Both the position numbers and the translations under genes were made by a program. From the NCBI RefSeq assembly GCF_014203545.1, contig NZ_JACHJG010000008.1:1-64000 (forward strand): DNA of 64,000 nucleotides, written 5' to 3'. Below the pieces are notes generated by a model that was not told where the DNA came from, did no database searches, and was given only the letters and a program-made list of their open reading frames with translations. Shown here piece after piece: positions 14,959-39,425 of this stretch. This DNA is from Streptomyces netropsis (GTDB lineage: Bacteria > Actinomycetota > Actinomycetes > Streptomycetales > Streptomycetaceae). Each line of letters starts with the position of its first letter. Within the stretch, counting starts at the first letter, position 1.

Positions 14959-15465
14959 TCACCACAGCGTGCTCAGGTCGTCGAGGTCGGTGAACCACTG
15001 CTCGGTGCCGGTGATCAGGCTTTCGGTGATCTCGACGGCGATCTGTCCGTCGTCGGCGAGCGTCTGGCGGACCTGCTCCAGGTTGTTCCGGAGCATGGGG
15101 TCGTTCTGGGCCGCAGCCTGAACCTTTTCGGCGGCGAGCACCTCGGCCGTTGCCTGGCGTTCGGCCTTGTCGGCCTCGAGGGCGCTCCGGGCGGTCTGGA
15201 TGAGCGCGTCGAGTTCCCTGCTGATCTGCTCGAAGAAGGCGGCCAGGGCCCCCTCCACGACGTCGGGGACTTCGTCGCAAGCCTCGACCAGCGGTGGCAC
15301 GACCACGACCATTCCCGGTCGCAGATGGTCGAGGTCGAGACCCGGATTGGCCTCGCGGATCGCCTGAGCGGCCCTTTCCTGCGCCGCCTTGGATGTTCCG
15401 GCCTTGACGAGCCGGGCAGCCAGGGCGGCGACGGTGTTCTCCTGCTCGACGACGACGATCGGCAT
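14959..15465 (-). CDS. LysM-like protein of an injection-system-like block
   Basis: A 168-residue cytoplasmic protein without a signal peptide. Residues about 8-55 (TVAALAARLVKAGTSKAAQE ... IREANPGLDLDHLRPGMVVVVPP) resemble a LysM fold, especially the final LRPGMVVVVPP strand, though with a longer first helix. Residues 60-165 are acidic and helical, probably a coiled coil (ALEADKAERQATAEVLAAEKVQAA). ATG 15465 has GGAAGGA nine bases upstream. It follows the large DUF6519 gene after 89 bases and precedes the broken DUF4255 gene. LysM proteins are regular baseplate or hub components of phage-tail-like injection systems, which fits the context. Confidence 0.7.
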   Translation of the reverse strand: MPIVVVEQENTVAALAARLVKAGTSKAAQERAAQAIREANPGLDLDHLRPGMVVVVPPLVEACDEVPDVVEGALAAFFEQISRELDALIQTARSALEADKAERQATAEVLAAEKVQAAAQNDPMLRNNLEQVRQTLADDGQIAVEITESLITGTEQWFTDLDDLSTLW

Positions 15466-15554
15466 CCTTGCGGTCCTTCCGGCGGTTGAATCGGGGAGGT
15501 CGAGGGCGAGAGGGAGCGGACGGTCCCTCGGAGGGCGGGGTACCGGACCCGTCG

Positions 15555-18500: not shown

Positions 18501-18782
18501 CAGGCCGTCGACGTACATCCGGCCGCGGCCGATGGTGATGCCGTCCGCCGAGCTCGTGATCCGGAAGGCGTCGGGGGTCGTACGGGGGACCACGGCGACG
18601 CCGGAGAACCCCTCCGCGATGCCAGGGGTGCCGAGGTCGGCGGCAGCGGCACGCAGTCGGCGGTCGACGATCGCCACGAACTCGTTCCAGTCGGAGCCGA
18701 GCGGCAGTCGGCCCTGCTGCACGACGACGCCGGAGTGGTCGCGCAGCGCGTCGAACCTCGCGCGGCTCAGATCGGCTCCCAT
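15555..18782 (-). CDS. DUF6519/right-handed beta-helix protein (tail-fibre-like)
   Basis: A 1075-residue protein. Residues 1 to about 430 form a DUF6519-type domain; the opening SRARFDALRDHSGVVVQQGR followed by LPLGSDWNEF is its signature and resembles N-terminal domains of tail-associated proteins. A Cys-rich linker follows (CRTLWPDAGHCGDCTVC), possibly metal-binding or disulfide-linked. From about residue 500 to 1060 comes a right-handed parallel beta-helix with repeated N-T-(I/V)-x-(G/N) turns (HNTIEGV, GNTLRDI, GNTVERI, ANTFTGA), as in pectate-lyase-like folds and phage tail spikes. There is no signal peptide. ATG 18782 follows AAGGAGG at good spacing. Together with the LysM-like gene and the DUF4255 remnant it suggests a structural or receptor-binding part of a contractile-injection-like particle; a polysaccharide-degrading role is also possible. 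Confidence 0.82.
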   Translation of the reverse strand: MGADLSRARFDALRDHSGVVVQQGRLPLGSDWNEFVAIVDRRLRAAAADLGTPGIAEGFSGVAVVPRTTPDAFRITSSADGITIGRGRMYVDGLLAENHGTGGIVLDPLLADPVSEEDTPYAHQPYWSAPKDLPTTGTHLVYLDVWQREVTPLQAPDLVEEAVGVDTTGRTQTVWRVRVHEPDTPGINCGTKDEDIPGWADVIALSAGRLTTDAVAVAAADDPGSPPPGGAYRGLENQTYRVEIHDGGAPGTATFKWSRDNGSVAVRVVEVVAPDRLRPEHLGRDTVPGLRENDWVEILDDHRELDERPGEMRRITTVHGDGTVSFSPALPTDLPATTDEARRRNLRIRRWAQAGTITSGTGAVLEDLDAAGAPGVIGVRTGSVAVVLEHGITVTLDAPGGGVFRPGDHWIFTARTATATVEKLDEAPPLGVHHHYARLAVVTFPSATYDCRTLWPDAGHCGDCTVCVTPESHASGVMTVQAAVDSVSEDGGTVCLAQGVYHLGEEPVRIREARSVRVHGQGPGTLLIGERGGFDISLSAFVTLEDFALISSSHRPGIKVSITAEVTVRRLTVLIAGGGEDSGQGTAVQLSNASLRTRIQDCDIAARIGVEAREYLDDEGGGIRAHLLTADLEISGNLLTCWWSGVQFRGSAAHMLRNTIRGNTVVFAQGAGLRLLGALSPWASFDITDNHVQSKGVGIEVGASGYTVRDNTVTGNPDPETGSGHGIAMRSGESGVLRGTTRISGNRISRIGGVGILVRVPTGDLDVSHNTIEGVGEGGIVVTERGRLADAVIVGNTLRDIATHKWSETGGTDGIRVVGATHALVGSNTVCNLTTELDEGKEGDEGGSPDHRTGVAVLACRESRVHGNTVERIGRAEPDDDDRCLGIHVSVFARTTIEGNVCRRIPEDVDDDGHTPWSGLLVGDDPGDDDGDPDTPDIRTGHIGPYVSVVGNRVSYLIGRHTAFAHASLDVSAIVSANTFTGAAQHPAARIDVAGDAVVSANQFRQHGDSDPAALTVRARTATVTANRARGGLPSIYLDVDPGSLAALGNITSRGIDPEDYIDPKWLNLNVMDVL

Positions 18783-18797
18783 GGGGATGCCTCCTTC

Positions 18798-19688
18798 TCA
18801 GGTCGCGTGGAAGAAGCCCGCTTCGGGTCCGAAGCGGAGGTACTCGTCGAGCCGCAGCAGGAGATCGCTCTCCCGTCGCGGCGTGAACAGCAGGTGGGTC
18901 GCGCCCATTTCGCTCTCGTCGTCGGCATCGCGCCGGATGGTGTCCGGTGTGGCGGTGCCGATCCGGCGTACGCGGGGTCGCCGAAACGGAGCGAGGTGAA
19001 GCGCGAGCGGGTGGCGCGGCGAGTGTCGGGAGGATCGGCGGGGCCCGGGCGGCAGCGGTAGCGACGGCACGGGCGCGATTCCTCCGGCACGTGACTGAAG
19101 CGCAGGTATCACTGCCGGCGTCCCGTTCATGCGCGTGCCCCAGGACAGAGCCGCCGGTTCCCGCATGCTGGGGGTGGCGCGCGCGTGCGGCCTCGTGTGG
19201 TTCATGCACTGCCTGGTCACGAGGCGTTCGAAAACGCGACGGCATGGGCCGGCCAGCCGGTGACGTCCCGGGTCAGCTGCTCCAGCGCGGCGGCCGTGGC
19301 CCTTGCGACGCCGGTAGGCGATGGTGTGAGCCCCCTCGGCGCGCGGTGAGCGGACCTTGTCCGCCACGCCGTCAGCACCACGGTGACCAGCACGCAGGCC
19401 GCGTGCGCGACGACGGCGTGCCGTCGGCGCCGCCGTCCGGCGGGCTTCATGCAGCCGACGACATTCATCAGCGTGAAGGGTGTCGCGAGGTACCGGAAGA
19501 AGTCGGCGATGCCGCGGGAGGTCCGGAACCGGTTGAGGAATGCGAGGGCATGGGCCGAGGTCTTCGGCAGGACATGCGGATTCGCTGCCCCCGCGCGTCT
19601 CCGCCGACGGCTCGAGGACCGCACTGCCCAACGCGCTCAGTGGTCCGTGATCACCGACGCCATGCACGCGGATTTCGATCGAGCTCAT
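18798..19688 (-). pseudogene. Decayed large membrane protein (RVHGVGDH family)
   Basis: Three in-order pieces lie in different frames. The N-terminus is MSSIEIRVHGVGDHGPLSAL (19688 downwards). A middle segment contains FFRYLATPFTLMNVVGCMKP and the hydrophobic HAACVLVTVVLTAW (about 19590-19380). The C-terminus is ESEMGATHLLFTPRRESDLL, ending at 18798. The pieces fit a large Streptomyces protein with an N-terminal VHGxG motif and internal membrane helices, of which most of the interior has been deleted. It ends 15 bases before the DUF6519 gene, so its promoter may still serve that operon. Confidence 0.6.
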
Positions 19689-20225
19689 GGGCTCAGCACA
19701 GCACAGGCCGGATTGTCGACGGCGTACGACGCGCGCCCGTGCCCTCTATGAGTGGCAGCGTGCGCTCCGATGCCGTGAACCCGCATTGCCGTGGGCGGTC
19801 TCGGCCCCTCGTAGCAGGCTTCCCGGCCGACCGCGAGGGCTCGCATGGTGCCGGTGCATGCTGTGGCCCATGCCCCCTCGGTGCAGGGGTGTGCACGTTT
19901 GGCCACACGAGCGCCGTGGTCGGGGTCCCGTCGACTGCTGGGCCGCAGAGGTCCTGGGCCGGAGGTTAAAGAAAACGCTGATTCCGGAAGCTTGGAGTAG
20001 ACCAGCGCCAGGTGGGTCAGCTCCGTCAGCCTCGCGGTGCACCCGTTTCGCGATCTCCAGCAGCGCGGGAAAGTGCAGGAGAGGCGCTCGCGCACCGCGC
20101 CTTGGTCAGCAGCACCCCCTGCTGACCGGGGCCACTTGCCCGGCGGCCTTCCCGGGTAAGTCGACTCCGCGAGTCACAGGCGATGATGGTGCCCCGATAC
20201 GTCGATCACGAGGTCAGGAGCTCCG
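19689..20225. other. Gap without supported gene
   Basis: About 540 bp. Several overlapping open frames exist on both strands, but none has a ribosome site plus recognisable protein. It contains a short AT-richer stretch (TTAAAGAAAACGC near 19967) and otherwise nothing I can assign. Confidence 0.4.
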
Positions 20226-20564
20226 ATGCCAAGACGGGTTCATCAGCCACTCGAGGACGAGGAGGTCGACTTTGTCCTCAGGATGAGCGACGGCCCGGTC
20301 CTCGCCTACTTCTCCGGGACGTGGCCTAAGGCGATCGAGGCGTGCCGGGCAATGGACCTTGTCGTGGGTCGGATCGCCGAGGAGTACGCGAACCTCCTGA
20401 CGGCCGTCAAGATCGACATCACCCGTTGTCCGGTGGCGACCAAGCGGTACGGCGTCACCGGGGCCCCGTCCGTCGTCCTACTCAAGGAAGGTGAGGTGGC
20501 GGCACGTAGCGCGGGACCGATGACCCACGCCGAGTTCCGGGAATTCCTGATCGCGCACCTCTGA
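20226..20564 (+). CDS. Thioredoxin-fold protein without the CxxC site
   Basis: A 112-residue cytoplasmic protein with a thioredoxin-like fold: the beta strand GPVLAYFSGTW, the helix IEACRAMDLVVGRIAEEYA, the strand LLTAVKIDITRCP, and the cis-proline loop YGVTGAPSVVLLKEGE are all in the expected order and spacing. The active-site segment reads SGTWPKAIEAC instead of WCGPC, so a dithiol/disulfide reaction is unlikely; a chaperone-like or scaffold role is more plausible. ATG 20226 is preceded by AGGAG. A strong terminator-like hairpin follows at 20741. The genes around it are mobile-element remnants, so it may be an accessory gene. Confidence 0.75.
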   Translation: MPRRVHQPLEDEEVDFVLRMSDGPVLAYFSGTWPKAIEACRAMDLVVGRIAEEYANLLTAVKIDITRCPVATKRYGVTGAPSVVLLKEGEVAARSAGPMTHAEFREFLIAHL

Positions 20565-20740
20565 CCGGCCGTCCGCTCCCCGCCGAGAACGGTGCGCAGG
20601 CACAATGGCTCGACGCGAATGCAATGACCCGCGCCCGTTCGCACACCCCGGTGACTGTCCGACGCGATCACCTGAGCACAGCTCGGTGGCATGACCGGAA
20701 CGGCACACCTGCGGGTGCTACGAAGGGGCGGATACCAAAG

Positions 20741-20780
20741 GGCCCGAACCTCCCGGTGAACGAGGTTCGGGCCTTCTCTT
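20741..20780. terminator. Terminator hairpin
   Basis: GGCCCGAACCTC (20741-20752) pairs perfectly with GAGGTTCGGGCC (20762-20773), followed by TTCTCTT. It probably ends the thioredoxin-fold gene transcript. Confidence 0.75.
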
Positions 20781-20790
20781 GCCGGGCCGT

Positions 20791-20830
20791 AGCCGCAGCC
20801 GCAGCCGCAGCCGCAGCCGCAGCCGCAGCC
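20791..20830. repeat. (GCAGCC)n microsatellite
   Basis: Six perfect GCAGCC units plus a partial one. The tract sits between the terminator and an IS-end fragment and does not belong to a supported gene. Confidence 0.9.
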
Positions 20831-20851
20831 AGAAATATCAGCTGGGCACGT

Positions 20852-20989
20852 CTTCGCCCGCATGAAGTGCTGGAAGATCCTTCGCGACTTCCGCTTGAAA
20901 GGCGATGGCGTCCACCACGCCACGCTCGGCGTCGCCCACCTTCGCCACCTCACAGTCCCCGACTCAGGTGATCCTTGCAGGACAGCGCC
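20852..20989 (+). pseudogene. 3' end of a DDE transposase plus IS right end (copy 1)
   Basis: The reading FARMKCWKILRDFRLKGDGV HHATLGVAHLRHL is the C-terminus of a DDE_Tnp_4-type (IS5 superfamily) transposase. It is followed by the element tip TTGCAGGACAGCGCC. Everything upstream is missing. A second copy lies 700 bp away in the same orientation. Confidence 0.75.
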
Positions 20990-21029
20990 CAGATCGACAT
21001 GCGAGCAGACGCCTGCCGAGCCATCGTGG

Positions 21030-23537: not shown

Positions 23538-24430
23538 CACTGAGCGTTTTCAGCGTGGCTACTGATCGGGTGAGGCCGATGAGGTCGAGGTGAGGGACGC
23601 AACGCACAAGGCTCCGGTGCCGTTGAGGGAGGTGTTCGAAGTCTCAACCCGCCGCCACAGAAGCCCTGTTGGTTCCCTATTCTGCCGCACTCGACCTCCC
23701 GCACGCCCTGGTCGAGTGGGTCACGATGCTCATCGTCACCCGAGAGGGTGACCGGCGGTGCAAACTCCCGCCGCACCGGCGTGCGCTCGTCACTCTGGTG
23801 TACCTACGCCACCACGACACCCTCTCCCGGATCGCCGCCGGCTTCGGGATATCCGTCGGCACCGCCCACGCCTACGCCACCGCCGCCACCGGCCTGCTCG
23901 CCGACCGCGCGCCGGGCCTGCTCAAGACGCTTCGCGAGCACGATCCGGAGTTCGTCCTGCTGGACGGGACTCTCGCCGAGTGCGACCGCGTCGGCGACAG
24001 CCGGGCCGACTACTCGGCCAAGCACCGCCGGCACGGCGTGAACGTCCAGGTCGTCACCGACCCCGCCGGCGAGGTGCTGTGGATCTCACCCGCGCTGCCG
24101 GGCCGCACCCACGACCTGACCGCAGCCCGAACCCACCACATCATCCGGATCTGCGAACGCCAGGGCGTCCCGATCCTCGCCGACCGCGCCTACCAGGGCG
24201 CCGGCTCCTGGGTCACCACCGGACTCAAACGCCCACCGCGCGGTGAACCCACCCTCACCCAGCGCACCGTCAACCGGGCCCTGGCCGCAGCCCGGGCACC
24301 GGTCGAACGCAGCATGGCACGACTGAAGTCCTGGCAGATCTTCCGCAGATCCCGCATCAGCCCCAACCACATGACCGTCATCAGCAAAGCCGTCCTCACC
24401 CTGGAGCGGCAACGCTGAATACGCTCACTG
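23538..24430 (+). mobile_element. IS5-superfamily element with DDE_Tnp_4 transposase
   Basis: The left tip CACTGAGCGTTTTCAGCG (from 23538) and the reverse complement of the right tip, CAGTGAGCGTATTCAGCG (to 24430), are inverted repeats around one transposase gene (893 bp in total). I cannot see a clear target duplication. It is inserted next to the end of another transposase remnant. Confidence 0.85.
23669..24418 (+). CDS. IS5-superfamily transposase (HTH_Tnp_4/DDE_Tnp_4)
   Basis: A 249-residue transposase. The N-terminal helix-turn-helix domain ([37 protein letters not shown]) is followed by a DDE domain with acidic residues in [26 protein letters not shown] and [17 protein letters not shown] 23669 is taken as the start; the frame is open only a little further upstream (from 23627) with no better codon. 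The gene is intact and stops within the right inverted repeat. A 97-bp inverted copy of its 3' end lies at 22492. Confidence 0.85.
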
Positions 24431-28023: not shown

Positions 28024-28745
28024 CTCCGGCGGCCGTCGACCGGGCCGGTCGTCCTCGGCCCGCTCGCACCCGGTCGAGAACGACCGGGACGTCGCACCTG
28101 GGAGATGCGCTGCGACGCGGAGCGCGGGCGGTTCGTGTTCCGGCGCGCTCTCCGTCGCGTGGGTGACCGGCACTCCCCCGCACGCGGCCGATCGTCCAGA
28201 AAGAGCCGTCCCCTCCAGATCGAGCCACTCCCTCATGGTGTCGGCGCACGTGCCGTATCCATCGCCGCAAGCGGTCCGGCCGCCGGGGGTGGCCCGCGTC
28301 ACCCGTTCCTTTCTCCGCCGGTGAGCGTCTTGAGCGGTTGCGGGCGCAAGTGCAAGGCGGGGCCCTGACAAGGCGGGGCGAGCCGATGGCGACTTCGGCG
28401 CGGGGTGTGGCTGCTGTATGGGGTGATGCTGCGTGGCGCGGCTCGGTCGGACGCCGGGCTGAGGCTGTCGGATCTGGAGAGGCGCCTGGTGCGGACCCTG
28501 CGGTCGAGGATGCCCGAGGGAGAGATTTACGCGATGGGACGGGTGTTCGCCGAGGAGTCGTCGGTCAAGAACGCGCCGCGGCGCCCTCCGCGCAGGAACA
28601 GTACGGGATCGTCGGCGCCGGTGTCGCTGTAGCGCTGTCCGGTGGCCGGGGGCGCGGCGCCGACGCTCCGGGCGGGGGTAGCCGGGCAGCAGTAGGGGCG
28701 GAGTGAAGGACGCGGGCCGTATGGTGGCGACACCGCGCGTCGATG
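28024..28745. other. Gap without supported gene
   Basis: About 720 bp. A plus-strand frame from 28429 (LRLSDLERRLVRTLRSRMPE) has no ribosome site and no recognisable family; the other frames are arginine/proline-rich shadows. It may hold the terminator region of the KAS III gene. Confidence 0.4.
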
Positions 28746-29774
28746 TCACAGGCGCACCTGGACGACGCCGAAGCAGGCTCCGCTGGCCAGGCCGATCAGT
28801 CCCACCAGGTCCCCGGGCTCCACTCGGTCGGACTCCTGGGCCGCGACCAGTTGCAGGGGCAGTGAGGCGGCGCCGCAGTTGCCGTGCTCGGCCACGGTGG
28901 CCAGGCAACGGTCGGCGGGCAGGCAGAGTTTGGTCGACGTGTCGAGGAACTGGGACATCGATATCTGGTGGAAGGCGATGAACGCGCTCGCGCGGACCGC
29001 CTCCATCTCGCGGTGTGCGAGGACCTCCAGCGCGAGGGGCAGGACGTCGAACGCGTCGTGCAGCAGGCTGCCGTTGAGCCGGAGGGTGGTGTGCTCGTCG
29101 TCGGTGGAGCGGCCGTGCAGCGAGCCGCCGCCGGCCACGGTGCAGGCCTCCCAGGCCGTGGGGTTGCCCCCGAAGACCAGGGAGAGCACGCCGGGGTCGT
29201 GCTCCCCCGCGGGGCCGGCGGTCAGGACGAGGGCGGCGCCGGCGTCGGAGACGGTGTAGCCGGGCATGGCCCGCAGGAGTGCCTCGTGGTCGGGCAGGCG
29301 CCAGCGGGTGGTTTCCGTGAGCGTCTCGCCACAAGCGATCAGCACGGTGCGGTACCGGCCTACGGCGATGAAGGCGCATGCCGTCTCCACCGCGTTGAGC
29401 ACGCTGTTGCAGGCGTTCTTGATGTCGAACACCGGGCAGACGACGCCGAGTTTCGCGGCCACGATGTGCGCGGTCGCCGGCTCGAGGAGGTCGTGGCTGG
29501 TGGCGGCGAACAGCAGCAGGTCGACCTCGTCGATGCCGGCACCCGCCGCTTCCAGCGCCTTGGTGGCGGCCGCCACCGCGAGGTCGGACGCCTGGACGCC
29601 CTCGTCGCGCACATGGACCCCGCGCACTCCGGTGAGGTCTTCCAGAAGTCCGGCCGGGGGAACATATGCCCCGCCCGAGGCCGCGATCCGCTCCCGGATG
29701 GCGCCCATGGTTCGGTAGCGGGACGGCAGATGGACCGCTGTCGCAGCCAGACGGGCACGCCGGGTGTCAGGCAC
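28746..29774 (-). CDS. 3-oxoacyl-ACP synthase III-like (KAS III) enzyme
   Basis: A 342-residue thiolase-fold condensing enzyme. The catalytic triad is readable: Cys122 in DIKNACNSVLNAVE, His269 in IAFHQISMSQF, Asn299 in AEHGNCGAASLPL. The N-terminal half has TGVRGVHVRDEGVQASDLA as in FabH-like proteins. GTG 29774 has no ribosome site but stands six bases after a TATGGT box, suggesting a leaderless message. It is divergent from the single-module polyketide synthase at 29928 with only about 150 bp between them. It may load a starter unit, extend a product, or release and esterify the synthase's acyl chain, as some KAS III-like enzymes of secondary metabolism do. A primary FabH is less likely because no fab operon surrounds it. 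Confidence 0.85.
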   Translation of the reverse strand: MPDTRRARLAATAVHLPSRYRTMGAIRERIAASGGAYVPPAGLLEDLTGVRGVHVRDEGVQASDLAVAAATKALEAAGAGIDEVDLLLFAATSHDLLEPATAHIVAAKLGVVCPVFDIKNACNSVLNAVETACAFIAVGRYRTVLIACGETLTETTRWRLPDHEALLRAMPGYTVSDAGAALVLTAGPAGEHDPGVLSLVFGGNPTAWEACTVAGGGSLHGRSTDDEHTTLRLNGSLLHDAFDVLPLALEVLAHREMEAVRASAFIAFHQISMSQFLDTSTKLCLPADRCLATVAEHGNCGAASLPLQLVAAQESDRVEPGDLVGLIGLASGACFGVVQVRL

Positions 29775-29780
29775 GGCATC

Positions 29781-29808
29781 ACCATAACCACTTCACATGT
29801 CAATTCAA
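29781..29808 (-). promoter_or_regulatory. Candidate leaderless promoter of the KAS III-like gene
   Basis: On the minus strand TTGAAT (29808-29803), a 16-base spacer and TATGGT (29786-29781) lie six bases before GTG 29774. The surrounding AT-rich stretch also carries a direct repeat CAATTCA at 29801 and about 19 bp further on, a possible shared operator for both divergent genes. Confidence 0.4.
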
Positions 29809-29927
29809 GTACTACGAAGGCAATTCACCATATAGAGCTACAAGTCGCTTGATCGGCACGGATGTTGGGCATCCCTCCCGTGCCACATCCGACCGGTTCG
29901 GTTCCTGCGGGGGGAATGGTGCATGTC

Positions 29928-32900
29928 ATGGGGCAGCGTGACCGCGCGGTGGCCGTGGTGGGTGCGGGCCTGCGGCTGCCCGGCGGGATCACCGACCTGG
30001 CCGGGCTGTGGGCGGCCCTGGCCGAGGGCCGTGACCTGGTCGGCGAGATCCCGGCTGACCGCTTCGACAGGACCCGCTTCGTGGACCCCGGGGCCGTGCG
30101 CGCCGGGCGGAGCTACACGGGCGCCGGCGGGTTCCTCGACGACGTGGCCTGCTTCGACCCGGGCTACTTCGGCATCGCCCCCAAAGAGGCTCCGTATGTC
30201 GACCCGCAGCAGCGGCTGCTGCTGGAGATGACGGCCGAGGCGCTGGACGATGCCGGGATCCCCGCCGAGTCGCTCGCCGGCTCGGACACCTGCGTCTACA
30301 TCGGCGTCTCCGACCCGGCCTACGGCCAGTTCATCATGACCCAGGAGAACCACACCAGCCCGTACGCCATGAGCGGCAGCACCCTGTCGATCGCAGCGAA
30401 CCGCCTGTCGTACTGTTTCGACCTGCGCGGGCCGAGCATGGCGGTCGACACCGCCTGTTCCTCGGCCCTGGTGGCCCTCGACCGGGCCTGCCGGACGCTG
30501 CTGGACGGCACCAGCCGCACCGCCCTGGCCGGCGGGGTCAACGTGCTGATCGGGCCCTACGCCTTCGCCGGCTTCTCGCATGCGGGCATGCTGTCGCGGC
30601 GTGGCAGGTGCGCGGCCTTCTCCGCCGGCGCCGACGGCTTCGTGCGGTCCGAGGGCGGGGGCGTCGTGGTCCTCAAGCGGCTGGCGGACGCGCTGTCGGA
30701 CGGCGACCGGATCCACGCGGTGATCGCCGGTACGGGCACCAACTGCGACGGCCGCACCCAGGGCATGGCCCTGCCCAGTTCCCACGCCCAGGAGGCGCTG
30801 CTGCGCGCGGTGTACGAGCGGGCGGGGGTGGAGCCGGACGACCTGGTGTACTTCGAGGCACACGGCACCGGGACCCCGGCGGGTGACCCGGCGGAGGCGG
30901 CCGCCATCGGACGGGCCCTGGGGCAGCGCCGAACGCGGGGGCCGCTGCCGATCGGCTCGGTCAAGTCCAACGTGGGCCACCTGGAACCGGCTGCCGGGAT
31001 GCCGAGCCTGCTCAAGGCCCTGCTGGTGCTGCGGCACGGCACGGCCCCGGCGACGCTGCACGCCCACCCGCTGAACCCTGCCATCGACTTCGCAGGCCTG
31101 GGCCTCGCCCCCACCGTCGAGTCCGTCGGGCTGTGCCTGGGCGAGCGGGCCGCGGTGGGCGTCAACTCCTTCGGCTTCGGCGGGGCCAACGCCCACGCGG
31201 TCCTCATCCCACCGCCCGCCCCGCCGGACCACCACCGGCCGCACACCGGGGGCACCCTGCCTGTGGTGGTCTCGGCTCGTTCGGCCGCGGCGCTCCGGGA
31301 GCTGACCGGGCGGGTCTCGGCCCGGCTGCGGGAGGCCGCCCCCGAGGAGTTCTACGACCTGGCCCGCACCACCACGCTGCGCCGCAGCGCGCACCCGCAC
31401 CGCGCGGCCGTCCTCGCCGACGGGCCGGAGCGTGCGGCGGAGGAGTTCGACCGGCTCCTCGCCGGGACGCCCGCCACCGGGGCACTGGCCCGTGCGGCTG
31501 ACCGGCGCACCGTGGCGTACGTCTTCTCCGGCAACGCCTCGCAATGGCCGGGCATGGCCGCGGATCTGCTGGCGGCCGACGTCGTCTTCCGGGCCGCCGT
31601 CGAAGAGGCGGACGCCGCCTTGGCGCCGCACCTGGGGTGGTCGGTGGCGAGGGAGCTGGCCGGGCCCGACGCCGCGGCCTGGCGGCGTACCGAGATCGCC
31701 CAGCCCGTCCTGTTCGCCGTGCAGATCGGCTTGGCCGCGCTGTTCGCCGCGCGGGGGCTGCGTCCCTCGGCGGTGACCGGGCACAGCGTCGGTGAGGTGG
31801 CCGCCGCCCATGTGGCCGGAGCGCTGCCTCTGGACGACGCGGCCCGGGTGATCGCCGAACGCAGCCGCGCCCAGGGGGTGACGGCGGGTGCCGGCCGGAT
31901 GGCGGCCGTCGGGCTGTCCGAGGCGGAGGCCCTCGGTGCGCTGGCTCGCTACGAGGGTGCCCTGGAGCTGGCCGGGATCAACAGCGACCGGGACGTCACG
32001 GTGGCGGGCGACCCGCGGGCGCTGGCGGATCTGGGCGCCGAGCTGAATGCCCGGGACGTCTTCTTCCGCGAGCTGGGCCTCGACTACGCCTTCCACAGCC
32101 GGGCCATGGACCCGATCGCGGACCCCTTGCGGGCCGCTCTGGCCGGGCTGGCCCCGGCCCCGGTCCGGGTCCCGTTCGTCTCCGCCGTCACCGGCACCCC
32201 GCTGCCGGGGGACGCGCTGACCCCCGACTACTGGTGGCGCAACGTACGCGAACCGGTCCGCTTCGCCGCGGCCGTCGCCCACGTCGTCGCGGAACATGCG
32301 GGCATCCTCGTGGAGATCGGCCCGCACCCGGTGCTCCGGCCCTATCTGCGTCGCACCGGCGCCTCCTACGTCCCCACCCTGCGCCGTGACGGCGACGGGC
32401 CGAGGGAAGCGGCCGCGGCCGTCGCCGGGCTGATCGCGACGGGTGCGGTCGTGGACTGGCCGACGCACTTCCCCGCCCCCGGCCGGGTGGCCGACCTGCC
32501 GCCCTACCCGTGGCAGCGCGAGCGGTACTGGCACGGGGCCCCGCAGGACATGGTCGTGCGCACCAGCGGCACCGGCCTGCTCGACCATCCGCTGTTGGGC
32601 GAGCGGCTCCCGGCGCCCCACGCGCTGTGGGAGGGCACCGTCGAGCCGCAGTTGGCGCCCTGGTTGGGGGATCACCGGATCGCGCGGACGGTGCTGATGC
32701 CGGCCGCCGGGTATCTGGAGATGGCCCTGTCGGCCGGGCGACTGGCTCTGGGCCGGCCGGTGGAGGTGCGGCATCTGCAGATCTTCCGGCCGCTGGCCCT
32801 GGGCTGGCCCGACCCGGAGGGCGTGCGCCTCCAGACGGCCGTGACCCCGGCCGATGGCGCGTTGACCATCAGCAGCAGCCAGGGCCGCGGCGGCGCGTGC

Positions 32901-35900
32901 GAGCCGGTGGTGCGTGCCGAGGTCCGCACCCTGCTCGGGGCGGCCCCCGCCCCGCTGGATCCGGAGGCGCTGCGCGCGCGGTGCCCCCGTACGGTCGCCG
33001 CCGCGGACTTCTACCGCACCTGCCACCGCGTCGGCCTCGGTGTCGGGCCGGCCTTCCAGCTGCTGGGCGAGGTGCACGTGGGCGAAGGCGAACTGCTGGC
33101 CTCCTACCGGCACGAGGAACCCGGCGCCCCGTACACGGTCCACCCCGTGGTGCTGGACGGCCCCCTCCAGGCCACCGTCGCGCTCGTCGAGAGGTGGATG
33201 GACAGCGGCCGGGCCTACCTGCCCTCGGTGTTCGGCGCGGTACGGGTCTGGCGCACGCCCGCGCCGACGGGCTTCGTGCATCTGCGCCAACGCGCCCGCA
33301 CCGAGAACGAGTTCTGCTGGGACATCGCCTACGCCGATGAGGACGGCACCGTCTCGGCACAGATCGAGGGCTGCCGCACCCGCCGGATGGACAACAGCGA
33401 CCACACGCCGGTGACCGTCCAGCGCACCGTCCTGCGCGCCGCACCGCTCCCCCTGTCCCCCGCCGCCTCCTCCCCGCTGCCGCCGCCCGCCGATCTGCTG
33501 GCGGCCGTCGAGGACCGCATGTCCGCAGCGCGTGCGGCGCTGCGCGAGAGCGGCCACGACCGCTGCGCCGCCGCGGCCGAGGAGGCCGGAGCCCACTGCT
33601 GGGCGGCCGCCCTCGCCGGGCTGCTCACCGACCCCGCCGCCACCTTCGCCGCGGGCGACCTCGTGGCCGGGGGCCTGCGGCCCCAGCACCGGCGTCTGGT
33701 CCGGCTGATGCTCCCGCTCGTGGCACGTCACGGGCTGGCCGAGCTCATGGACAACGAGCGGTGGCGGCTCACCCGCACGGTGCCGCGCCCGGGCGAGCTG
33801 CTGCGGAAGCTGGTGGAGGACCACCCGGCCTGCGCTGCCGAAACCGTCCTGATCAACCGGCAATTGCGCCACCTGCCCGACGTATTGCGCGGCGCCTCCG
33901 AGGCGGCGGAACTCCTGCCGCCCGGGGACCCCGTGCTCGAGCAGCTCCACGCGACCGCGCCCGCCCGCCGCTTCGCCCACCGCGTCGTCATGGCACTCGT
34001 CACCGAGGCCGTCCGGCAGTGGCCCGGGGACCGCCCGCTGCGGGTGCTGGAGGCCGGCGCCGGCACCCACGCCCTCACCGCGGCACTGCTGCCCCTCCTC
34101 CCGGCCGACCGCACCCGTTTCACCTGCACCGATGCCACGGCGACCGGCTTCGCCCGGGCCGAACACCGTTTCGTCGACTACGACTTCGTCGAATACCGCC
34201 TCCTCGCCCTGGACCGTGACCCGCTCTCCCAGGGCTTCCCCGATGGCGGCTTCGACCTGGTCGTCGCCGGGGACGCGCTGCACACCGCCACCGACCTGAC
34301 GGCCGCGCTGGGGCACGTCCGCACCCTCCTTTCCCCCGGCGGCCTGCTGCTCTCCACGGAGCCGCACGACGTCTGGCGTACGGCCTTCGTCCTCGGGGCG
34401 ACCGAGGCGTTCTGGCAGCGTGGCGACCACGCGCTACGCCCGGAGACCCGGCTGCTCGCCCGGGAGAAGTGGCTGCCGCTGCTGGCCACGTGCGGCTTCA
34501 CGGGTGCGGTCCGCACGGGCATCGAGGACCGCTCCGTCCTGCTGGCGTCCGCCGACCGCCTGCCCGCGGACGGGCCCGCACCACCCACGCCGGAACCGGG
34601 CGCCGCCTGGCTCGTCGTGACCGAGACCTCCGACGAGGTCCCCCTCGCCCGAGCCCTGGCCGAGCTGCTCGGCCAAGCCGACGTCGTCGCCACCCCCGAG
34701 GACCCGGCCGCCTGGGATGCCGCCCTCCCCTCCGGGGGTGTCCCGCCCGGCGTCGTCCTGCTGCTGGCCACGGACGCCTGCGCGGAGGTGGTCGCCCTGA
34801 CGACCCGTCGCGCCGCCGTCCTGCGCGCGCTGAGTGCCGCCCGTTCCGGGGCGATCGGCGGGGTGTGGCTGGTCACCCGCCCCAGCGGACTGTTCCCCGC
34901 GCCCGAGCGCCCCGCCCACCCGGCCGACGCAGCGGTGTGGGGGGCCGCCCGCGTCCTGGCCAACGAGCACCCCGGCCTGTCCCTGCGCCGGATCTCCCTG
35001 GACCGCTCCGACGCCCCGGCCACGGGCGCCCGCCGACTGGCCCACGAGCTGCTCGCGCCCGGCGCCGAGGACGAGATCGTCCTCACCCGGAACGGACGCT
35101 TCGTCCCCCGCCAGCTCCAGCGTCCGGCCGACCGCCCCGACCCCGCCCCCGGCCACACCCCGTACGTTCTGGAGGTCCGGGACCCAGGGCTCTCCCGCCG
35201 ACTCGTCTGGCGCCGGACCGAACCGCTGCGTCCGGGCCCCGGCGAGATCCTCGTCGAGGTCCGGGCCGTCGGCCTCAACTACCGCGATCCGATGCGGGCC
35301 AACGGGCTGCTGCCGCCCGAAGCCGTCGAAGGCAGCCCCCTCAGCCGCGGGCTGGGCACCGACTGCGCGGGCATCGTCCGCGCCACGGGCCCCGGGGTCA
35401 CCACGTTCACACCAGGCGACCGGGTGCTCGGACCGATGCCCGCGTCACTGGCCTCGCACACCGTCACACCGGCCGCCACGTCACTGCGCGTCCCGGACGG
35501 AATGAGCTACGCCGAGGCCGCGACCTTCCCGGTGGCGTTCCTGACCGTCCACCACACCCTCGCCGAGCAGGCCCGGACCTTCCCCGGCGAGACGGTCCTG
35601 GTGCACGGCGGCGCCGGGGCGGTCGGCCTGACCGTCCTCCAGAGCGCCCGGCACCTGGGGCTCCACGTCATCGCCACCGCGGGCACCGAGGCCAAACGCG
35701 ACCTGCTGCACACCCTCGGCGCGGCCCACGTCCTGGACTCGCGCAGCCTGGACTTCGTCCCGCGGGTACGGGAACTGACCGGTGGCCGGGGCGTCGACAT
35801 CGTCGTCAACTCCCTCAGCGGAGAGGCCATCGCCCACGGACTCGACCTGTTGCGCCCCAACGGCCGCTTCATCGAACTCGGCAAACGCGACATCTTCCTC

Positions 35901-37277
35901 AACAACCCACTCCTGCTACGCCCCTTCCACCACAGCCTCACCTTCCTCGGCTTCAACCTCGACAGCGTCATGTTCGACCCGCAACGATGCCCGCCCCTGC
36001 TGCGGGACGTCGCGGAACGGATCGTCCGCGGCGCCTACCGTCCGCTCCTCCACACCGTCCACCCCGCCGCCCGCGTGGACGAAGCGTTCCGGCTGCTCCA
36101 GCACTCCCAGCACACCGGCAAGGTGGTCGTCGCCTTCGACCCGCTGGACGAGCCCGTACCCGTCGAGTCCCCCTCCGCCATCCCCCTCCTGGACCCGGAC
36201 GGCACCTATCTCGTCACCGGCGGACTCGGCGGCTTCGGCGCCGCCACCGCCACATGGCTCGCCGACCGGGGTGCCCGGCACCTCGCGCTGGTCTCCCGGC
36301 GCGGCGCGAACGCGCCCGAGGCAACCGAGATCCTCGCCCACCTGGCCGAGCGAGGTGCCGACGCAACCGCCTACGCCGCCGACGTCACCGACGAGACGGC
36401 CATGCGACAGGTCATCACAGCCGTCGATGCCACCGGGCACCGCCTGCGCGGCATCGCCCACTGCGCCATGCACCTCGACGACGCCCCGCTGGCCGACCTG
36501 ACCGACGAGCGGTTCGCCGCCGTCCTCGCCCCCAAGATCGCCGGGGCCGACGTCCTGGCACACCTCACCGCCGACCGCGATCCGGACGTCGACCTGTTCC
36601 TGCTGTACTCCTCGGTCGCAGCGAGCATCGGAAACCCCGGGCAGGCCCCCTACGCTGCCGCGAACGCCTACGTGGAAGCTCTGGCTCGCGCTCGCCGCCA
36701 CGCCGGCCGCGCCGGCAGCGCGATCGCCTGGGGCCCGATCTCCGAAACGGGCTACGTCGCCCGCAACGACCTGGGCGCCACCATGGCCCACCTCGGCTTC
36801 GAGCCCGCGGCTCCCGCCGAGGCCTTCGCGGCCGCAGACCACCTCGTCGCCACGGGCACCGACGTCTCCGGCGTCGGCCGCTACCGCTGGGGCCGCGCCC
36901 GCCGTGTCCTCCCGGCTCTGGCGGCGCCGCGCTACGCCGCTCTCGTCCCGGCCGGTGCCGCGGAATCGGACGACACACGCGAAGAGTTCCTGCGCCACCT
37001 GGCCGCACTGTCCCCCGAAGAGACCGCGCACGCCGTCACCGAGGCCCTGACTCACCTCCTCGCCACCGTCCTGCGTGCCGACCCGACGGAACTGGACGCG
37101 GACCGCCGACTGGAGGAGTTCGGCCTGGACTCCCTGATGAGCACCGAATTCCTCCTGCACACCCGCGAACGTTTCGGCGTCCAGCTCTCCCCCACCGAAC
37201 TCATCGGCGGCCCCCGCACGCTGACGCAATTCGCACGGCTGGTCCACGAGCGACTGGGGACCCATACGGCGGGCTGA
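29928..37277 (+). CDS. Single-module highly reducing type I polyketide synthase
   Basis: A multidomain synthase of about 2449 residues. In order: KS (Cys177 in VDTACSSA, His312 in EAHGTGTPAGD, His351 in SNVGHLEPA); AT (Ser620 in GHSVGEV; YAFH at 720-723); DH (His916, Asp1077 in VVLDGPLQA); a C-methyltransferase-like region (about 1200-1580, EAGAGTHALT); ER (HGGAGAVGL at 1893); KR (GGLGGFG at 2098, Tyr2242); ACP (Ser2402 in GLDSLMS). No thioesterase or other release domain is present. Two motifs are off consensus: DH has Arg for Gly in HxxxGxxxxP, and the methyltransferase has GTH for GTG, so methylation may be lost. This domain order is that of fungal highly reducing synthases and suggests iterative use to make a reduced chain. 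ATG 29928 has GGGGGGA 11 bases upstream; ATG 29862 and 29916 are alternatives. The divergent KAS III-like enzyme is the likely partner. Confidence 0.9.
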   Translation: MGQRDRAVAVVGAGLRLPGGITDLAGLWAALAEGRDLVGEIPADRFDRTRFVDPGAVRAGRSYTGAGGFLDDVACFDPGYFGIAPKEAPYVDPQQRLLLEMTAEALDDAGIPAESLAGSDTCVYIGVSDPAYGQFIMTQENHTSPYAMSGSTLSIAANRLSYCFDLRGPSMAVDTACSSALVALDRACRTLLDGTSRTALAGGVNVLIGPYAFAGFSHAGMLSRRGRCAAFSAGADGFVRSEGGGVVVLKRLADALSDGDRIHAVIAGTGTNCDGRTQGMALPSSHAQEALLRAVYERAGVEPDDLVYFEAHGTGTPAGDPAEAAAIGRALGQRRTRGPLPIGSVKSNVGHLEPAAGMPSLLKALLVLRHGTAPATLHAHPLNPAIDFAGLGLAPTVESVGLCLGERAAVGVNSFGFGGANAHAVLIPPPAPPDHHRPHTGGTLPVVVSARSAAALRELTGRVSARLREAAPEEFYDLARTTTLRRSAHPHRAAVLADGPERAAEEFDRLLAGTPATGALARAADRRTVAYVFSGNASQWPGMAADLLAADVVFRAAVEEADAALAPHLGWSVARELAGPDAAAWRRTEIAQPVLFAVQIGLAALFAARGLRPSAVTGHSVGEVAAAHVAGALPLDDAARVIAERSRAQGVTAGAGRMAAVGLSEAEALGALARYEGALELAGINSDRDVTVAGDPRALADLGAELNARDVFFRELGLDYAFHSRAMDPIADPLRAALAGLAPAPVRVPFVSAVTGTPLPGDALTPDYWWRNVREPVRFAAAVAHVVAEHAGILVEIGPHPVLRPYLRRTGASYVPTLRRDGDGPREAAAAVAGLIATGAVVDWPTHFPAPGRVADLPPYPWQRERYWHGAPQDMVVRTSGTGLLDHPLLGERLPAPHALWEGTVEPQLAPWLGDHRIARTVLMPAAGYLEMALSAGRLALGRPVEVRHLQIFRPLALGWPDPEGVRLQTAVTPADGALTISSSQGRGGACEPVVRAEVRTLLGAAPAPLDPEALRARCPRTVAAADFYRTCHRVGLGVGPAFQLLGEVHVGEGELLASYRHEEPGAPYTVHPVVLDGPLQATVALVERWMDSGRAYLPSVFGAVRVWRTPAPTGFVHLRQRARTENEFCWDIAYADEDGTVSAQIEGCRTRRMDNSDHTPVTVQRTVLRAAPLPLSPAASSPLPPPADLLAAVEDRMSAARAALRESGHDRCAAAAEEAGAHCWAAALAGLLTDPAATFAAGDLVAGGLRPQHRRLVRLMLPLVARHGLAELMDNERWRLTRTVPRPGELLRKLVEDHPACAAETVLINRQLRHLPDVLRGASEAAELLPPGDPVLEQLHATAPARRFAHRVVMALVTEAVRQWPGDRPLRVLEAGAGTHALTAALLPLLPADRTRFTCTDATATGFARAEHRFVDYDFVEYRLLALDRDPLSQGFPDGGFDLVVAGDALHTATDLTAALGHVRTLLSPGGLLLSTEPHDVWRTAFVLGATEAFWQRGDHALRPETRLLAREKWLPLLATCGFTGAVRTGIEDRSVLLASADRLPADGPAPPTPEPGAAWLVVTETSDEVPLARALAELLGQADVVATPEDPAAWDAALPSGGVPPGVVLLLATDACAEVVALTTRRAAVLRALSAARSGAIGGVWLVTRPSGLFPAPERPAHPADAAVWGAARVLANEHPGLSLRRISLDRSDAPATGARRLAHELLAPGAEDEIVLTRNGRFVPRQLQRPADRPDPAPGHTPYVLEVRDPGLSRRLVWRRTEPLRPGPGEILVEVRAVGLNYRDPMRANGLLPPEAVEGSPLSRGLGTDCAGIVRATGPGVTTFTPGDRVLGPMPASLASHTVTPAATSLRVPDGMSYAEAATFPVAFLTVHHTLAEQARTFPGETVLVHGGAGAVGLTVLQSARHLGLHVIATAGTEAKRDLLHTLGAAHVLDSRSLDFVPRVRELTGGRGVDIVVNSLSGEAIAHGLDLLRPNGRFIELGKRDIFLNNPLLLRPFHHSLTFLGFNLDSVMFDPQRCPPLLRDVAERIVRGAYRPLLHTVHPAARVDEAFRLLQHSQHTGKVVVAFDPLDEPVPVESPSAIPLLDPDGTYLVTGGLGGFGAATATWLADRGARHLALVSRRGANAPEATEILAHLAERGADATAYAADVTDETAMRQVITAVDATGHRLRGIAHCAMHLDDAPLADLTDERFAAVLAPKIAGADVLAHLTADRDPDVDLFLLYSSVAASIGNPGQAPYAAANAYVEALARARRHAGRAGSAIAWGPISETGYVARNDLGATMAHLGFEPAAPAEAFAAADHLVATGTDVSGVGRYRWGRARRVLPALAAPRYAALVPAGAAESDDTREEFLRHLAALSPEETAHAVTEALTHLLATVLRADPTELDADRRLEEFGLDSLMSTEFLLHTRERFGVQLSPTELIGGPRTLTQFARLVHERLGTHTAG

Positions 37278-37584: not shown

Positions 37585-39000
37585 TCACGAGGCGTTCAGG
37601 CCCACGTCCGCAGCCGTGAGGGGACGACGGACCGGGGCCAGCGTCGTGTACTGGTCCGCGCCGATGTCACGGGCTCTGCCGCGCGGGTGACCGTCGATGT
37701 CCTCGGTGACGGACGGGCTCTTCAGCGTCGCCGCCCCGATCGCGGGGCTGCCCGCCGACAGCCGGGACACCCCGTCGGATTCCTGCCGGAGGAGCGGGTC
37801 GACCCGGCGGTATCCGCCGGAGGGGATGTTGCCGTTGGACGCCGGACCCCACAGGATGTTGCCCTGCCAGGTGAAACCGGTGTTCTTCCCCATCGCGACC
37901 AAGCTGCCCGCGCTCGCGACCAGGAGGTTGTCAGCGATGACCACGTCCTGGGGCGCGTAGTCGCGACCCTCGCCCGAGAGCGTCCCGGCGTTGCCGACCA
38001 GCGTGTTGTGCACGATCACCGCACGGTCGCACGCGTCGTTGCCCCGCCGCTCCTCCTTCGACTCGCCGGGGTGGTGATCGCGGGTGGTGCCGCTGCCGAT
38101 CACCAGGGCGCGCCCGGACAGGCCACCGAGGTAGTTGTTGACGACCAGATGGTCGTTGCCGTAGACGCGGACGCCTTCCGCGCCGCCGAGCAGATAGTTG
38201 CCCTCCACGGTGGAACGGTTGCCGTGCCGCAGCACGATTCCGCCGCGGCTGTTACGGATCGTGTTGTACCGGACGGTGTTCTCCGAAGTCTTCACCGAGA
38301 TGGCCTCGGGGTCTCCGTCGCACTTCTCGAACAGGTTGTACTCCACGACCGCTTTCGCGCTGAGCAGTGCCCGGGCGCTGTCGCCGAGCCGGACGGCCTC
38401 TCCGCCGTTGGCGCCGGTGAAGCTGTGACCGGAGAAGTGGTTCCTGAACAGGGTCAGGTTCTGGGCGACGGTCTTCGCGTCGCGGCCGTCGAGGACGACG
38501 AAGATGCCCTCAGTGGTCCTGTCGTGGAAACGGTTCCGGTCGATCTTGACGTCGTCGCCCCGCACGACGACCCAGTCCATCCCGCTGACATCGGCGAACT
38601 TGAAGTCGTTGCGCGTCAGCCGGATGTGCGAGGAGTTCGCCGGGATCTCCAGCGTGCTGCTCTGCCGGAAGGCGAAACCGCTGACGACGATGTTGCTCGA
38701 ATCGCTGAAGACGAAGCCGCGCTCGCCCTGGAGCACCGCGCCGCCACGGGATGCCGCGACGATGGTGATCGGTGCGTCGCCGGTGCCGTTCTTCCCCGAG
38801 ACGCGAAGGGCACCCCCCGCCGGGACGGTGTACGTGCCGTCGGCCACCACTATCCGATCGCCGGGCACCGCGCGGTCGATCGCCTTCTGAAGTCCGTCCA
38901 GGGAACTCACCGTCACCGTGGCCGCCGACGCGCCGACCGGCACAGCGGCGAGCCCGGCGGCACCCAGCAGGGTGCCGGTGAGGAACGTGCGTCTTTTCAT
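37585..39000 (-). CDS. Polysaccharide lyase, PL6/chondroitinase-B type
   Basis: A 471-residue exported beta-helix enzyme. The N-terminus MKRRTFLTGTLLGAAGLAAV is a Tat signal (RRTFL). The mature protein has the PL6-type opening (SLDGLQKAIDRAVPGDRIVV, ADGTYTV) and beta-helix rungs with NSRGGIVLRHGNRSTVEGNY and GAEGVRVYGNDHLVVNNYLG, where conserved Lys/Arg/His of alginate lyase or chondroitinase B are found. The C-terminus has SAGSPAIGAAT and DIGADQY, typical of secreted right-handed beta-helix proteins. It would cleave uronic-acid polymers (alginate or glycosaminoglycan) outside the cell. ATG 39000 has AGGAG six bases upstream. Confidence 0.83.
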   Translation of the reverse strand: MKRRTFLTGTLLGAAGLAAVPVGASAATVTVSSLDGLQKAIDRAVPGDRIVVADGTYTVPAGGALRVSGKNGTGDAPITIVAASRGGAVLQGERGFVFSDSSNIVVSGFAFRQSSTLEIPANSSHIRLTRNDFKFADVSGMDWVVVRGDDVKIDRNRFHDRTTEGIFVVLDGRDAKTVAQNLTLFRNHFSGHSFTGANGGEAVRLGDSARALLSAKAVVEYNLFEKCDGDPEAISVKTSENTVRYNTIRNSRGGIVLRHGNRSTVEGNYLLGGAEGVRVYGNDHLVVNNYLGGLSGRALVIGSGTTRDHHPGESKEERRGNDACDRAVIVHNTLVGNAGTLSGEGRDYAPQDVVIADNLLVASAGSLVAMGKNTGFTWQGNILWGPASNGNIPSGGYRRVDPLLRQESDGVSRLSAGSPAIGAATLKSPSVTEDIDGHPRGRARDIGADQYTTLAPVRRPLTAADVGLNAS

Positions 39001-39425
39001 GATGACTCCTGAGACAACGGAAATGTACCGGGTCGATCCTTGTGCCCCGGCGTGACGTTGCGCAACAACTGACGGACCGTAACCACGGGCCGCCGCACAC
39101 CCTTTCCCGCTCGCGGCCACACCCTCACAAGGGGGTGGACCGGCCCGGCCTCCCTGCACTTCTTGGGGTAGGCCGCTGTCTCTTCTCAGCCTGTTGCCGC
39201 GCGCGTCCGCTTCCGTGCCCTCGTGCCGCCCCCTGCCGCCAGGGGCCGACGAGTGCGACGGGGACGGCAAGTTCGGTGCTCTGTTGCGCAGGAGCGGACC
39301 GGGGTACCTTCCGCCCCATGGGGATACGCGCGCAGCACCCGTCTGACGTACAGATCGCTCGTAACAGTGGCCGTATGCCGCCCCATTCGACCAGTCAGCC
39401 GCCCCTCCCCCGAAGGCGCCCGCCG
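39001..39425. other. Divergent intergenic region
   Basis: About 425 bp between the lyase and the carboxypeptidase. No protein is supported; both promoters should lie here but neither could be assigned. Confidence 0.35.

What the first reader, a model, noticed from the sequence alone, without database searches (positions are those of the whole stretch)
28746..37277. Bacterial single-module synthase with fungal-type highly reducing domain order, paired with a KAS III-like enzyme
One protein carries KS-AT-DH-MT-ER-KR-ACP, the layout of fungal highly reducing polyketide synthases, with no release domain and no further modules. A divergent KAS III-like enzyme with an intact Cys122-His269-Asn299 triad is its only visible partner. 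Two domains are off consensus: Arg replaces Gly in the DH motif (HRIARTVLMP), and the methyltransferase loop is EAGAGTH instead of ExGxGTG, so methylation may be lost. The KAS III enzyme could load the chain or release it. Few bacterial clusters of this two-gene type are known to me.
Basis: partly seen in the sequence, partly recalled or inferred. Interest (0 to 1): 0.75.

Follow-up and report, generated by a model that had tools for sequence, protein, structure and literature searches.

The report
Polyketide synthase wired to olefin-pathway condenser
A Streptomyces chromosome carries a one-module polyketide synthase facing an enzyme of the kind that welds two fatty chains head to head, and many related strains carry the same pair with the rest of an olefin/beta-lactone pathway, which this strain has mostly lost; if active, it would be an untested route to hydrocarbons, beta-lactones or ketones built from polyketide chains.

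Summary
The architecture is real. Window 29862-37277 encodes KS-AT-DH-MT-ER-KR-ACP with no release domain; a divergent KAS III-like gene (28746-29774, minus) has an intact C122-H269-N299 triad. The pair is conserved: in 33 of 36 named loci whose KAS III is at least 58% identical, the PKS lies beside it. The 'two-gene cluster' is a pruned remnant: in 22 of those 33, OleB-, OleC- and OleD-like genes follow KAS III (all three in 20; two cut by contig ends). The window keeps only a frameshifted 5' relic of oleB, and searches of its genome found no oleB, oleC or oleD orthologue. KAS III is OleA-like: it has the catalytic glutamate (E98) that six of six other KAS III proteins of the genome lack, and OleA leads the family-profile and fold rankings narrowly (FabH leads the single-sequence one). 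Best reading: the PKS builds an acyl chain, the OleA-like enzyme releases it by head-to-head Claisen condensation, and OleD/C/B, where present, give beta-lactone or olefin; without them a ketone is expected. 'Fungal type' holds only for domain order. The MT SAM loop is off consensus in 19 of 24 rows. No product is known.

The parts
29862..37277 (+). Single-module type I PKS, KS-AT-DH-MT-ER-KR-ACP, 2471 aa as listed (true start may be 29916 or 29928); no release domain
   Evidence: ORF, Pfam, start context, relatives 59-72% identical
29943..31205 (+). KS domain; catalytic Cys and two His intact
   Evidence: Pfam PF00109/PF02801, alignment of 13, tree
31518..32420 (+). AT domain; motif YAFH in 13 of 13 rows, read as malonyl-type from recalled rules
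   Evidence: Pfam PF00698, alignment
32586..33395 (+). DH domain; His and Asp kept, Arg at the motif glycine
   Evidence: Pfam PF21089/PF14765, alignments
33402..34559 (+). C-methyltransferase domain (SAM core about 34047-34349); SAM loop EAGAGTH off consensus
   Evidence: Pfam, alignment A3, model and fold match to CurJ
35235..36131 (+). ER domain
   Evidence: Pfam PF08240/PF00107/PF13602
36201..36743 (+). KR domain
   Evidence: Pfam PF08659, active site
37044..37241 (+). ACP domain, Ser of GLDSL motif present
   Evidence: Pfam PF00550, alignment
28746..29774 (-). OleA-like KAS III (thiolase superfamily), 342 aa, C122-H269-N299 plus E98
28588..28747 (-). Relic of oleB (beta-lactone decarboxylase-like gene): 5' end only, one frameshift, then cut off
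   Evidence: 80.6% DNA identity over 103 nt (28690-28588) to oleB of G090; translated score 35.0 bits against a best of 27.7 in 378 other segments of the window

Best explanation
The pair is what remains, in this strain, of a PKS-fed Ole-type pathway. Proposed steps: (1) the PKS works iteratively on malonyl units with KR, DH and ER and leaves an acyl chain on its ACP (inferred; the MT is probably silent here). [quoted passage not shown] this is the off-loading step (inferred from residues, neighbours and the Shewanella Pfa/OleA precedent). (3) In relatives an OleD-like reductase, an OleC-like beta-lactone synthetase and an OleB-like decarboxylase carry this on to beta-hydroxy acid, beta-lactone and internal olefin (inferred from family resemblance). 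(4) In the window strain oleB is a relic and no oleC or oleD orthologue was found, so the beta-keto acid should decarboxylate to a long-chain ketone, or the pathway is dying (inferred). Shown here: gene content, conservation, diagnostic residues, relic. Not shown: any activity or product.
For: Adjacency: PKS beside KAS III in 12 of 12 relatives at >=63% identity found among 294 other genomes of the genus sample and in 33 of 36 named loci at >=58% (10 of the 12 are among the 36). OleB/C/D-like genes directly behind KAS III in 22 of the 33 (all three in 20; L114 and L117 cut by contig ends), OleC/OleB on the far side of the PKS in 3 (L116, L128, L129), none in the stretch held in 8; OleD on the far side too in G241, the genome of L128. 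NCBIfam for the genes of two relatives: OleC second to PRK09274 (436 and 412 of 478 bits) with 'olefin beta-lactone synthetase' 418 and 354; OleD first with '2-alkyl-3-oxoalkanoate reductase' 320 and 330; OleB haloalkane-dehalogenase family 153 and 139 bits. E98 (OleA Glu117 position) in 28 of 28 rows of A2, but S/T/C/Q/S/T in 6 of 6 other KAS III proteins of this genome, all six with HQAN. Family profile: best PDB matches are the X. oryzae protein 3fk5 (135.9 bits) and X. campestris OleA (135.1); model: ranks 1-11 are X. campestris OleA, Z 40.3-41.0, then 3fk5 39.8, FabH 39.1, MxnB 38.7. Relic. Precedent: OleA takes chains from the ACPs of the iterative Pfa synthase and alone yields a 31:8 ketone (PMC6463001, passages).
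Against: No product or activity is known. Compared as a single sequence, KAS III has a FabH (4dfe, 96.5 bits) just above OleA (94.7), and the family profile scores FabH 4ryb 132.9 close to OleA 135.1. The Ole-type matches lie under NCBI's cut-offs (KAS III 136 of 285, OleC 418 of 900, OleD 320 of 580 bits), so substrates may differ. The published OleA pattern EPxx[AS]x(14,18)DxxNACL fails at its last residue: NACN in 13 of 13 close rows, NACS in L125. Three close KAS III relatives have no PKS beside them (L125, L126, L130), so the enzyme need not use a PKS chain. PpyS-type pyrone synthases share the Glu and could fit. The window may be an abandoned locus: the matched part of its relic (80.6%) is as similar to G090 as the live KAS III (79.7%) and PKS (77-79%) genes are, so the loss looks recent.
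Confidence: 0.6

Rival explanations
1. KAS III is a PpyS-like pyrone synthase: it fuses the PKS chain with a beta-ketoacyl thioester and cyclises to a dialkyl alpha-pyrone, which needs no OleBCD and would explain two-gene clusters.
For: PpyS keeps the same Glu (E105) and makes pyrones by head-to-head condensation; a second PpyS group holds Streptomyces proteins of unknown role (PMC4578411, parts 1 and 2 of 3). Loci without oleBCD in the stretch held exist (8 of 33).
Against: 22 of 33 loci carry OleB/C/D-like genes that in the known pathway act on a free beta-keto acid. No PpyS sequence was available to compare, and the 2015 paper had no PpyS crystal, so the sequence and fold ranks do not exclude it.
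Confidence: 0.15
2. KAS III is a FabH- or acyltransferase-type loader that starts the PKS with a special starter unit; the chain is released by an unlinked thioesterase.
Against: E98 and the NACN/HQI signatures set it apart from 6 of 6 other KAS III proteins in the genome, which read HQAN; co-occurrence with OleB/C/D-like genes is unexplained.
Confidence: 0.13
3. The window locus is non-functional: after loss of oleBCD the pair is only waiting to decay.
For: oleB relic; its similarity to a live oleB suggests a recent loss; no oleC/oleD orthologue in the genome; transposase gene nearby at 23669-24418.
Against: The 7.4 kb PKS ORF and KAS III are intact with all catalytic residues checked except the MT loop and the DH glycine. 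A sister lineage (L124, genome G295) also keeps a full-length PKS and KAS III while no OleC match at E<=1e-30 and no OleD match above 33-37% was found there.
Confidence: 0.3

Closest known systems
Shewanella PfaA-E + OleABCD (polyunsaturated hydrocarbon 31:9)
   Same: An iterative PKS-like synthase supplies ACP-bound chains to an OleA-type enzyme; OleA alone gives a ketone (PMC6463001, passages read).
   Different: There the synthase is a five-gene PUFA synthase; here one polypeptide with a full reducing loop and an MT domain, divergently paired with the OleA-like gene.
OleABCD olefin pathway (Xanthomonas, Micrococcus)
   Same: OleA-like Glu and triad, and in relatives OleB-, OleC- and OleD-like neighbours.
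   Different: Pattern ends NACN not NACL, scores lie under curated cut-offs, and a dedicated PKS stands beside the gene. The known pathway condenses activated fatty acids (passages).
Lipstatin (Lst) and other oleACD beta-lactone clusters of actinobacteria
   Same: OleA/C/D-type logic in Streptomyces (PMC7064751 passages); of 44 outgroup loci (KAS III 43-50%), 33 show an OleD-like and 21 an OleC-like match of at least 30% identity, none an OleB-like one.
   Different: None of those 44 has this PKS in the stretch held (two show a 36% match that coincides with a FabF-like KS; several are short contigs); here 22 of 33 have OleB-like genes behind KAS III.
Photopyrone and pseudopyronine synthases PpyS, PyrS
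   Same: Head-to-head condensation with a catalytic Glu.
   Different: Make alpha-pyrones; no OleBCD named in the parts read.
Mycocerosic acid synthase (MAS-like PKS)
   Same: Single-module reducing PKS, best full-length PDB match 926 bits.
   Different: No C-methyltransferase in the MAS order (recalled); KS only 48% identical and outside the window clade.
Fungal highly reducing PKS (LovB type)
   Same: Order KS-AT-DH-MT-ER-KR-ACP.
   Different: KS and MT score below bacterial enzymes.
Clostridium acetobutylicum single-module highly reducing PKS
   Same: Bacterial one-module PKS shown to be iterative and highly reducing (PMC5686105, passages).
   Different: KS-AT-DH-KR-ACP without ER or MT; no OleA-like partner in the passages seen.

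Membership tests
OleA (head-to-head thiolase) | KAS III/thiolase fold with Cys-His-Asn triad | tested here: met
   Pfam PF08541/PF08545; C122, H269, N299 invariant in 13 of 13 and 28 of 28 rows
OleA (head-to-head thiolase) | Catalytic Glu at position 117 of X. campestris OleA | tested here: met
   E98 aligns with it; absent in 6 of 6 other KAS III proteins of the genome
OleA (head-to-head thiolase) | Published pattern EPxx[AS]x(14,18)DxxNACL | tested here: not met
   All positions fit except the last: NACN
OleA (head-to-head thiolase) | Score over the curated cut-off of the best NCBIfam model (PRK09258) | tested here: not met
   136.2 of 285 bits; so described as OleA-like, not filed as OleA
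OleA (head-to-head thiolase) | oleB/oleC/oleD next to the gene | tested here: not met
   Window: relic of oleB only. Relatives: behind KAS III in 22 of 33 loci with the PKS, all three in 20
OleA (head-to-head thiolase) | Condenses two acyl thioesters without decarboxylation | not testable with these tools
   needs enzyme assay
OleC / OleD / OleB (genes of relatives) | Best match to the characterised Ole models | tested here: inconclusive
   OleD model first, OleC model second, for two relatives; scores under cut-offs; OleB only to the haloalkane dehalogenase family
PpyS-type pyrone synthase | Catalytic Glu and head-to-head fusion to a pyrone | tested here: inconclusive
   Glu met; no PpyS sequence in hand, product unknown
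Fungal highly reducing PKS | Domain order KS-AT-DH-MT-ER-KR-ACP | tested here: met
Fungal highly reducing PKS | KS nested with fungal HR-PKS | tested here: inconclusive
   No fungal KS could be put in the tree; PDB scores rank LovB below MAS, Pks13, PikA1, CurL
Fungal highly reducing PKS | Iterative use of the single module | not testable with these tools
   inferred from the lack of other modules beside it
Ordinary modular (assembly-line) PKS | KS groups with the other KS of the genome | tested here: not met
   Own clade, 98/99 support, apart from 18 of them
MAS-like PKS | KS-AT-DH-ER-KR-ACP without MT (recalled) | tested here: not met
   MT fold present

The most novel reading that the evidence does not exclude
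A one-polypeptide, highly reducing iterative PKS is off-loaded by head-to-head Claisen condensation through an OleA-like enzyme, giving polyketide-derived olefins or beta-lactones in full clusters. The pruned PKS + OleA-like pair, probably reached more than once, is a working minimal ketone (or pyrone) synthase rather than debris.
Probability: 0.35. Interest if true: 0.68.

Novelty: new variant of a known kind. Interest (0 to 1): 0.55.

Why it matters
It would give a release mechanism for a bacterial single-module PKS that has no release domain, and would link type I polyketide assembly to the Ole hydrocarbon/beta-lactone route in Streptomyces. Beta-lactones are a drug class. The KAS III occurs at >=63% identity in 13 of 295 genomes of the genus sample (about 4%), with the PKS beside it in each, and in named strains, so the products can be looked for directly.

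Tried and rejected
Rejected: a stand-alone two-gene system as the original state of the window locus; it has an oleB relic and its sister G090 has the full set. Rejected: DH inactivation by the Arg; the position varies in relatives while His and Asp stay. Rejected: fungal origin; the score ranks do not favour it, though a tree with fungal KS was not possible.

Left open: loss of methylation. Against activity: SAM loop ExGxGTG intact in only 5 of 24 rows (L113, L119, L121, L122, L133), and dN of the MT is 0.22-0.33 against 0.10-0.14 for KS in five pairs. But the spacer after the MT (0.27-0.34) and the ACP (0.20-0.38) are as fast, and codon bias makes dS rough. For activity: His294 and Glu320 invariant in 24 of 24 (their role is recalled).

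Results against my reading: L125, L126 and L130 lack the PKS. FabH is the best single-sequence PDB match of KAS III. Genomes G213, G219 and G258, without oleBCD beside the pair, hold an OleC-like gene (42-46%) elsewhere, in G213 next to another KAS III, and G296 (genome of L097) holds an OleD-like gene (52%) on another contig, so such loci may be complemented in trans. No OleC match at E<=1e-30 in G006, G295 or G296. Own genome: best OleC match 33%, 73 bits; best OleD 35%, 81 bits; best OleB 38% over part of the protein.

Led nowhere: paper searches for a known product or a bacterial PKS of this kind. One search listed 29 papers for the domain string; by their titles nearly all concern fungi; none was opened. 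Flanking genes of the window are not shared with L065-L076 apart from a 39% match in L075, nor with L098, L123 and L124; L097 has one 132-aa match to another ORF.

Rows dropped or weak: only 80 of 436 loci were kept by the tool. PKS rows broken by frame or contig ends (L097, L110, L112, L114, L117, L120, L127) stayed in the adjacency count. Of 28 usable MT stretches 23 were used with the window; the five left out (L102, L104, L108, L109, L111) are also off consensus. The L129 row strings two PKS copies together and was not used. The KAS III tree used 46 rows. Confidence was lowered from 0.62 to 0.60 on re-reading.


Full report
OBSERVATION. The two ORFs are at the stated coordinates. Pfam gives KS, AT, DH, methyltransferase, ER, KR and ACP in this order and nothing after the ACP. 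The KAS III-like protein has C122, H269 and N299. The window is the start of contig C8 of an 8.04 Mb genome, taken to be Streptomyces from its named relatives. That genome holds 67 matches to this KS, of which the best apart from itself is 48% identical.

CONSERVATION. KAS III was searched in 295 genomes of the genus sample: 13, the window's included, have a copy at >=63% identity. In all 12 others the PKS (59-72% identical) stands divergently beside it. A second search in named genomes kept 80 of 436 loci. Of 36 with KAS III >=58% identical, 33 have the PKS beside it; of the other 44 (43-50%), none shows it in the stretch held; two of these have a 36% match of about 300 residues that coincides with a FabF-like KS, and several are short contigs.

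MISSING GENES. Behind KAS III, in the same direction, 22 of the 33 loci carry an alpha/beta hydrolase (OleB-like), an AMP-ligase (OleC-like) and an NAD-dependent reductase (OleD-like); all three are seen in 20, and L114 and L117 are cut by contig ends. Eleven of the 22 have a discrete ACP and a FabF-like KS next, one of them truncated. In three loci OleC- and OleB-like genes lie on the far side of the PKS instead (L116, L128, L129), and in G241, the genome of L128, OleD is there too. Eight show none in the stretch held. For two relatives (G090 in L065; G160, strain CHD11, in L071) NCBIfam ranks the characterised OleD model first and the OleC model second, under their cut-offs.

RELIC. In the window the DNA behind KAS III still matches oleB: 80.6% over 103 nt to the oleB of G090, with a gap that shifts the frame, then the match stops at 28588. 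Translated, it scores 35.0 bits; the best of 378 other segments of the window scores 27.7. The genome-wide search found this relic again and no orthologue of oleB, oleC or oleD. In the KAS III tree the window sits with L097 and L124, neither with oleBCD beside the pair, and this trio is sister to G090, which has the full set (four-row clade 100/98). L097 and L124 show no relic. The matched part of the window relic is as similar to G090 as the live genes are (KAS III 79.7%, PKS 77-79%), so I read its loss as recent and perhaps separate from theirs (inference).

WHAT KAS III IS. As a single sequence it scores FabH 4dfe 96.5 and X. campestris OleA 94.7 bits. The family profile puts 3fk5 of X. oryzae (135.9) and OleA (135.1) first, FabH 4ryb 132.9 close behind. 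The model (pLDDT 88) matches X. campestris OleA at ranks 1-11 (Z 40.3-41.0), 3fk5 39.8, FabH 39.1, MxnB 38.7; these margins are small. The residue test is sharper. OleA and PpyS use a Glu from the partner subunit, and MxnB/CorB have Val there (PMC4578411, read in parts 1 and 2 of 3). The window has E98 at this place and so do 28 of 28 rows; six of six other KAS III proteins of this genome do not. The published OleA pattern fits except for the last letter, N for L. So it is OleA-like in expected mechanism and a separate subfamily by membership.

WHAT THE PKS IS. KS scores best with bacterial PKS structures and lower with LovB; an amoebal PKS lies between. The tree puts it in its own clade with a solo PKS of G107 that is 47% identical over its length and has beside it only a 27% OleD-like reductase, no KAS III or OleB/C. 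AT has YAFH in 13 of 13 rows; I read this as malonyl from recalled rules. KR, DH and ER motifs are kept. The MT fold is intact, nearest to CurJ by sequence too. Its SAM loop is intact in 5 of 24 rows, all in one KAS III clade, and its dN is 1.8 to 2.8 times that of the KS, though the spacer and ACP are as fast. Its His and Glu are invariant. I expect little or no methylation in the window enzyme but do not claim proof.

MECHANISM. [quoted passage not shown] By analogy the PKS chain here leaves by head-to-head condensation. Absence of oleB in actinobacterial oleACD clusters goes with beta-lactones (PMC7064751, passages), so clusters with an OleB-like gene are expected to give olefins, if that protein is a true OleB. 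The window strain should give a ketone or nothing.

NOVELTY. In the open PubMed Central library searched (listings, and passages or parts of five papers) I found no report of a type I PKS coupled to ole genes in Streptomyces. The survey of Gram-positive ole genes does not mention Streptomyces in its main text. Subscription journals and supplements were not searched. Hence: a new variant of a known kind.

Noticed in passing
L129 (Streptomyces sp. ISL-11) 2315-9733 and 13936-21024: Two copies of this PKS, one on either side of the KAS III gene (10001-11026); the second is cut by the end of the stretch held.
   Followed up: no
L186 (G107) 6322-13794: Solo PKS, 47% identical over its length, without KAS III or OleB/C beside it; the only other match among 296 genomes of the phylum sample at E<=1e-50.
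   Followed up: partly
L125 and L126: OleB-C-D-like genes with a 58-61% identical KAS III and a FabF-like KS (in L125 also a discrete ACP) but no PKS: perhaps the form before the PKS joined or after it left.
   Followed up: partly
L134-L157 and similar, KAS III 43-50% identical: A second actinobacterial group pairs this KAS III with OleC- and OleD-like genes and other enzymes (amidotransferase-like, ACP, FAD enzyme, judged by eye in L077-L081) in Streptomyces, Lentzea, Saccharopolyspora and Pseudonocardia; product unknown to me.
   Followed up: no
window 23669-24418: DDE-type transposase gene about 4 kb from the oleB relic; possible agent of the loss, untested.
   Followed up: no
window 15555-18782: 1075-aa protein with DUF6519 and a beta-helix region.
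   Followed up: no
window 37585-39270: Chondroitinase-B-like beta-helix lyase just downstream of the PKS, not found beside the pair in L065-L076.
   Followed up: no
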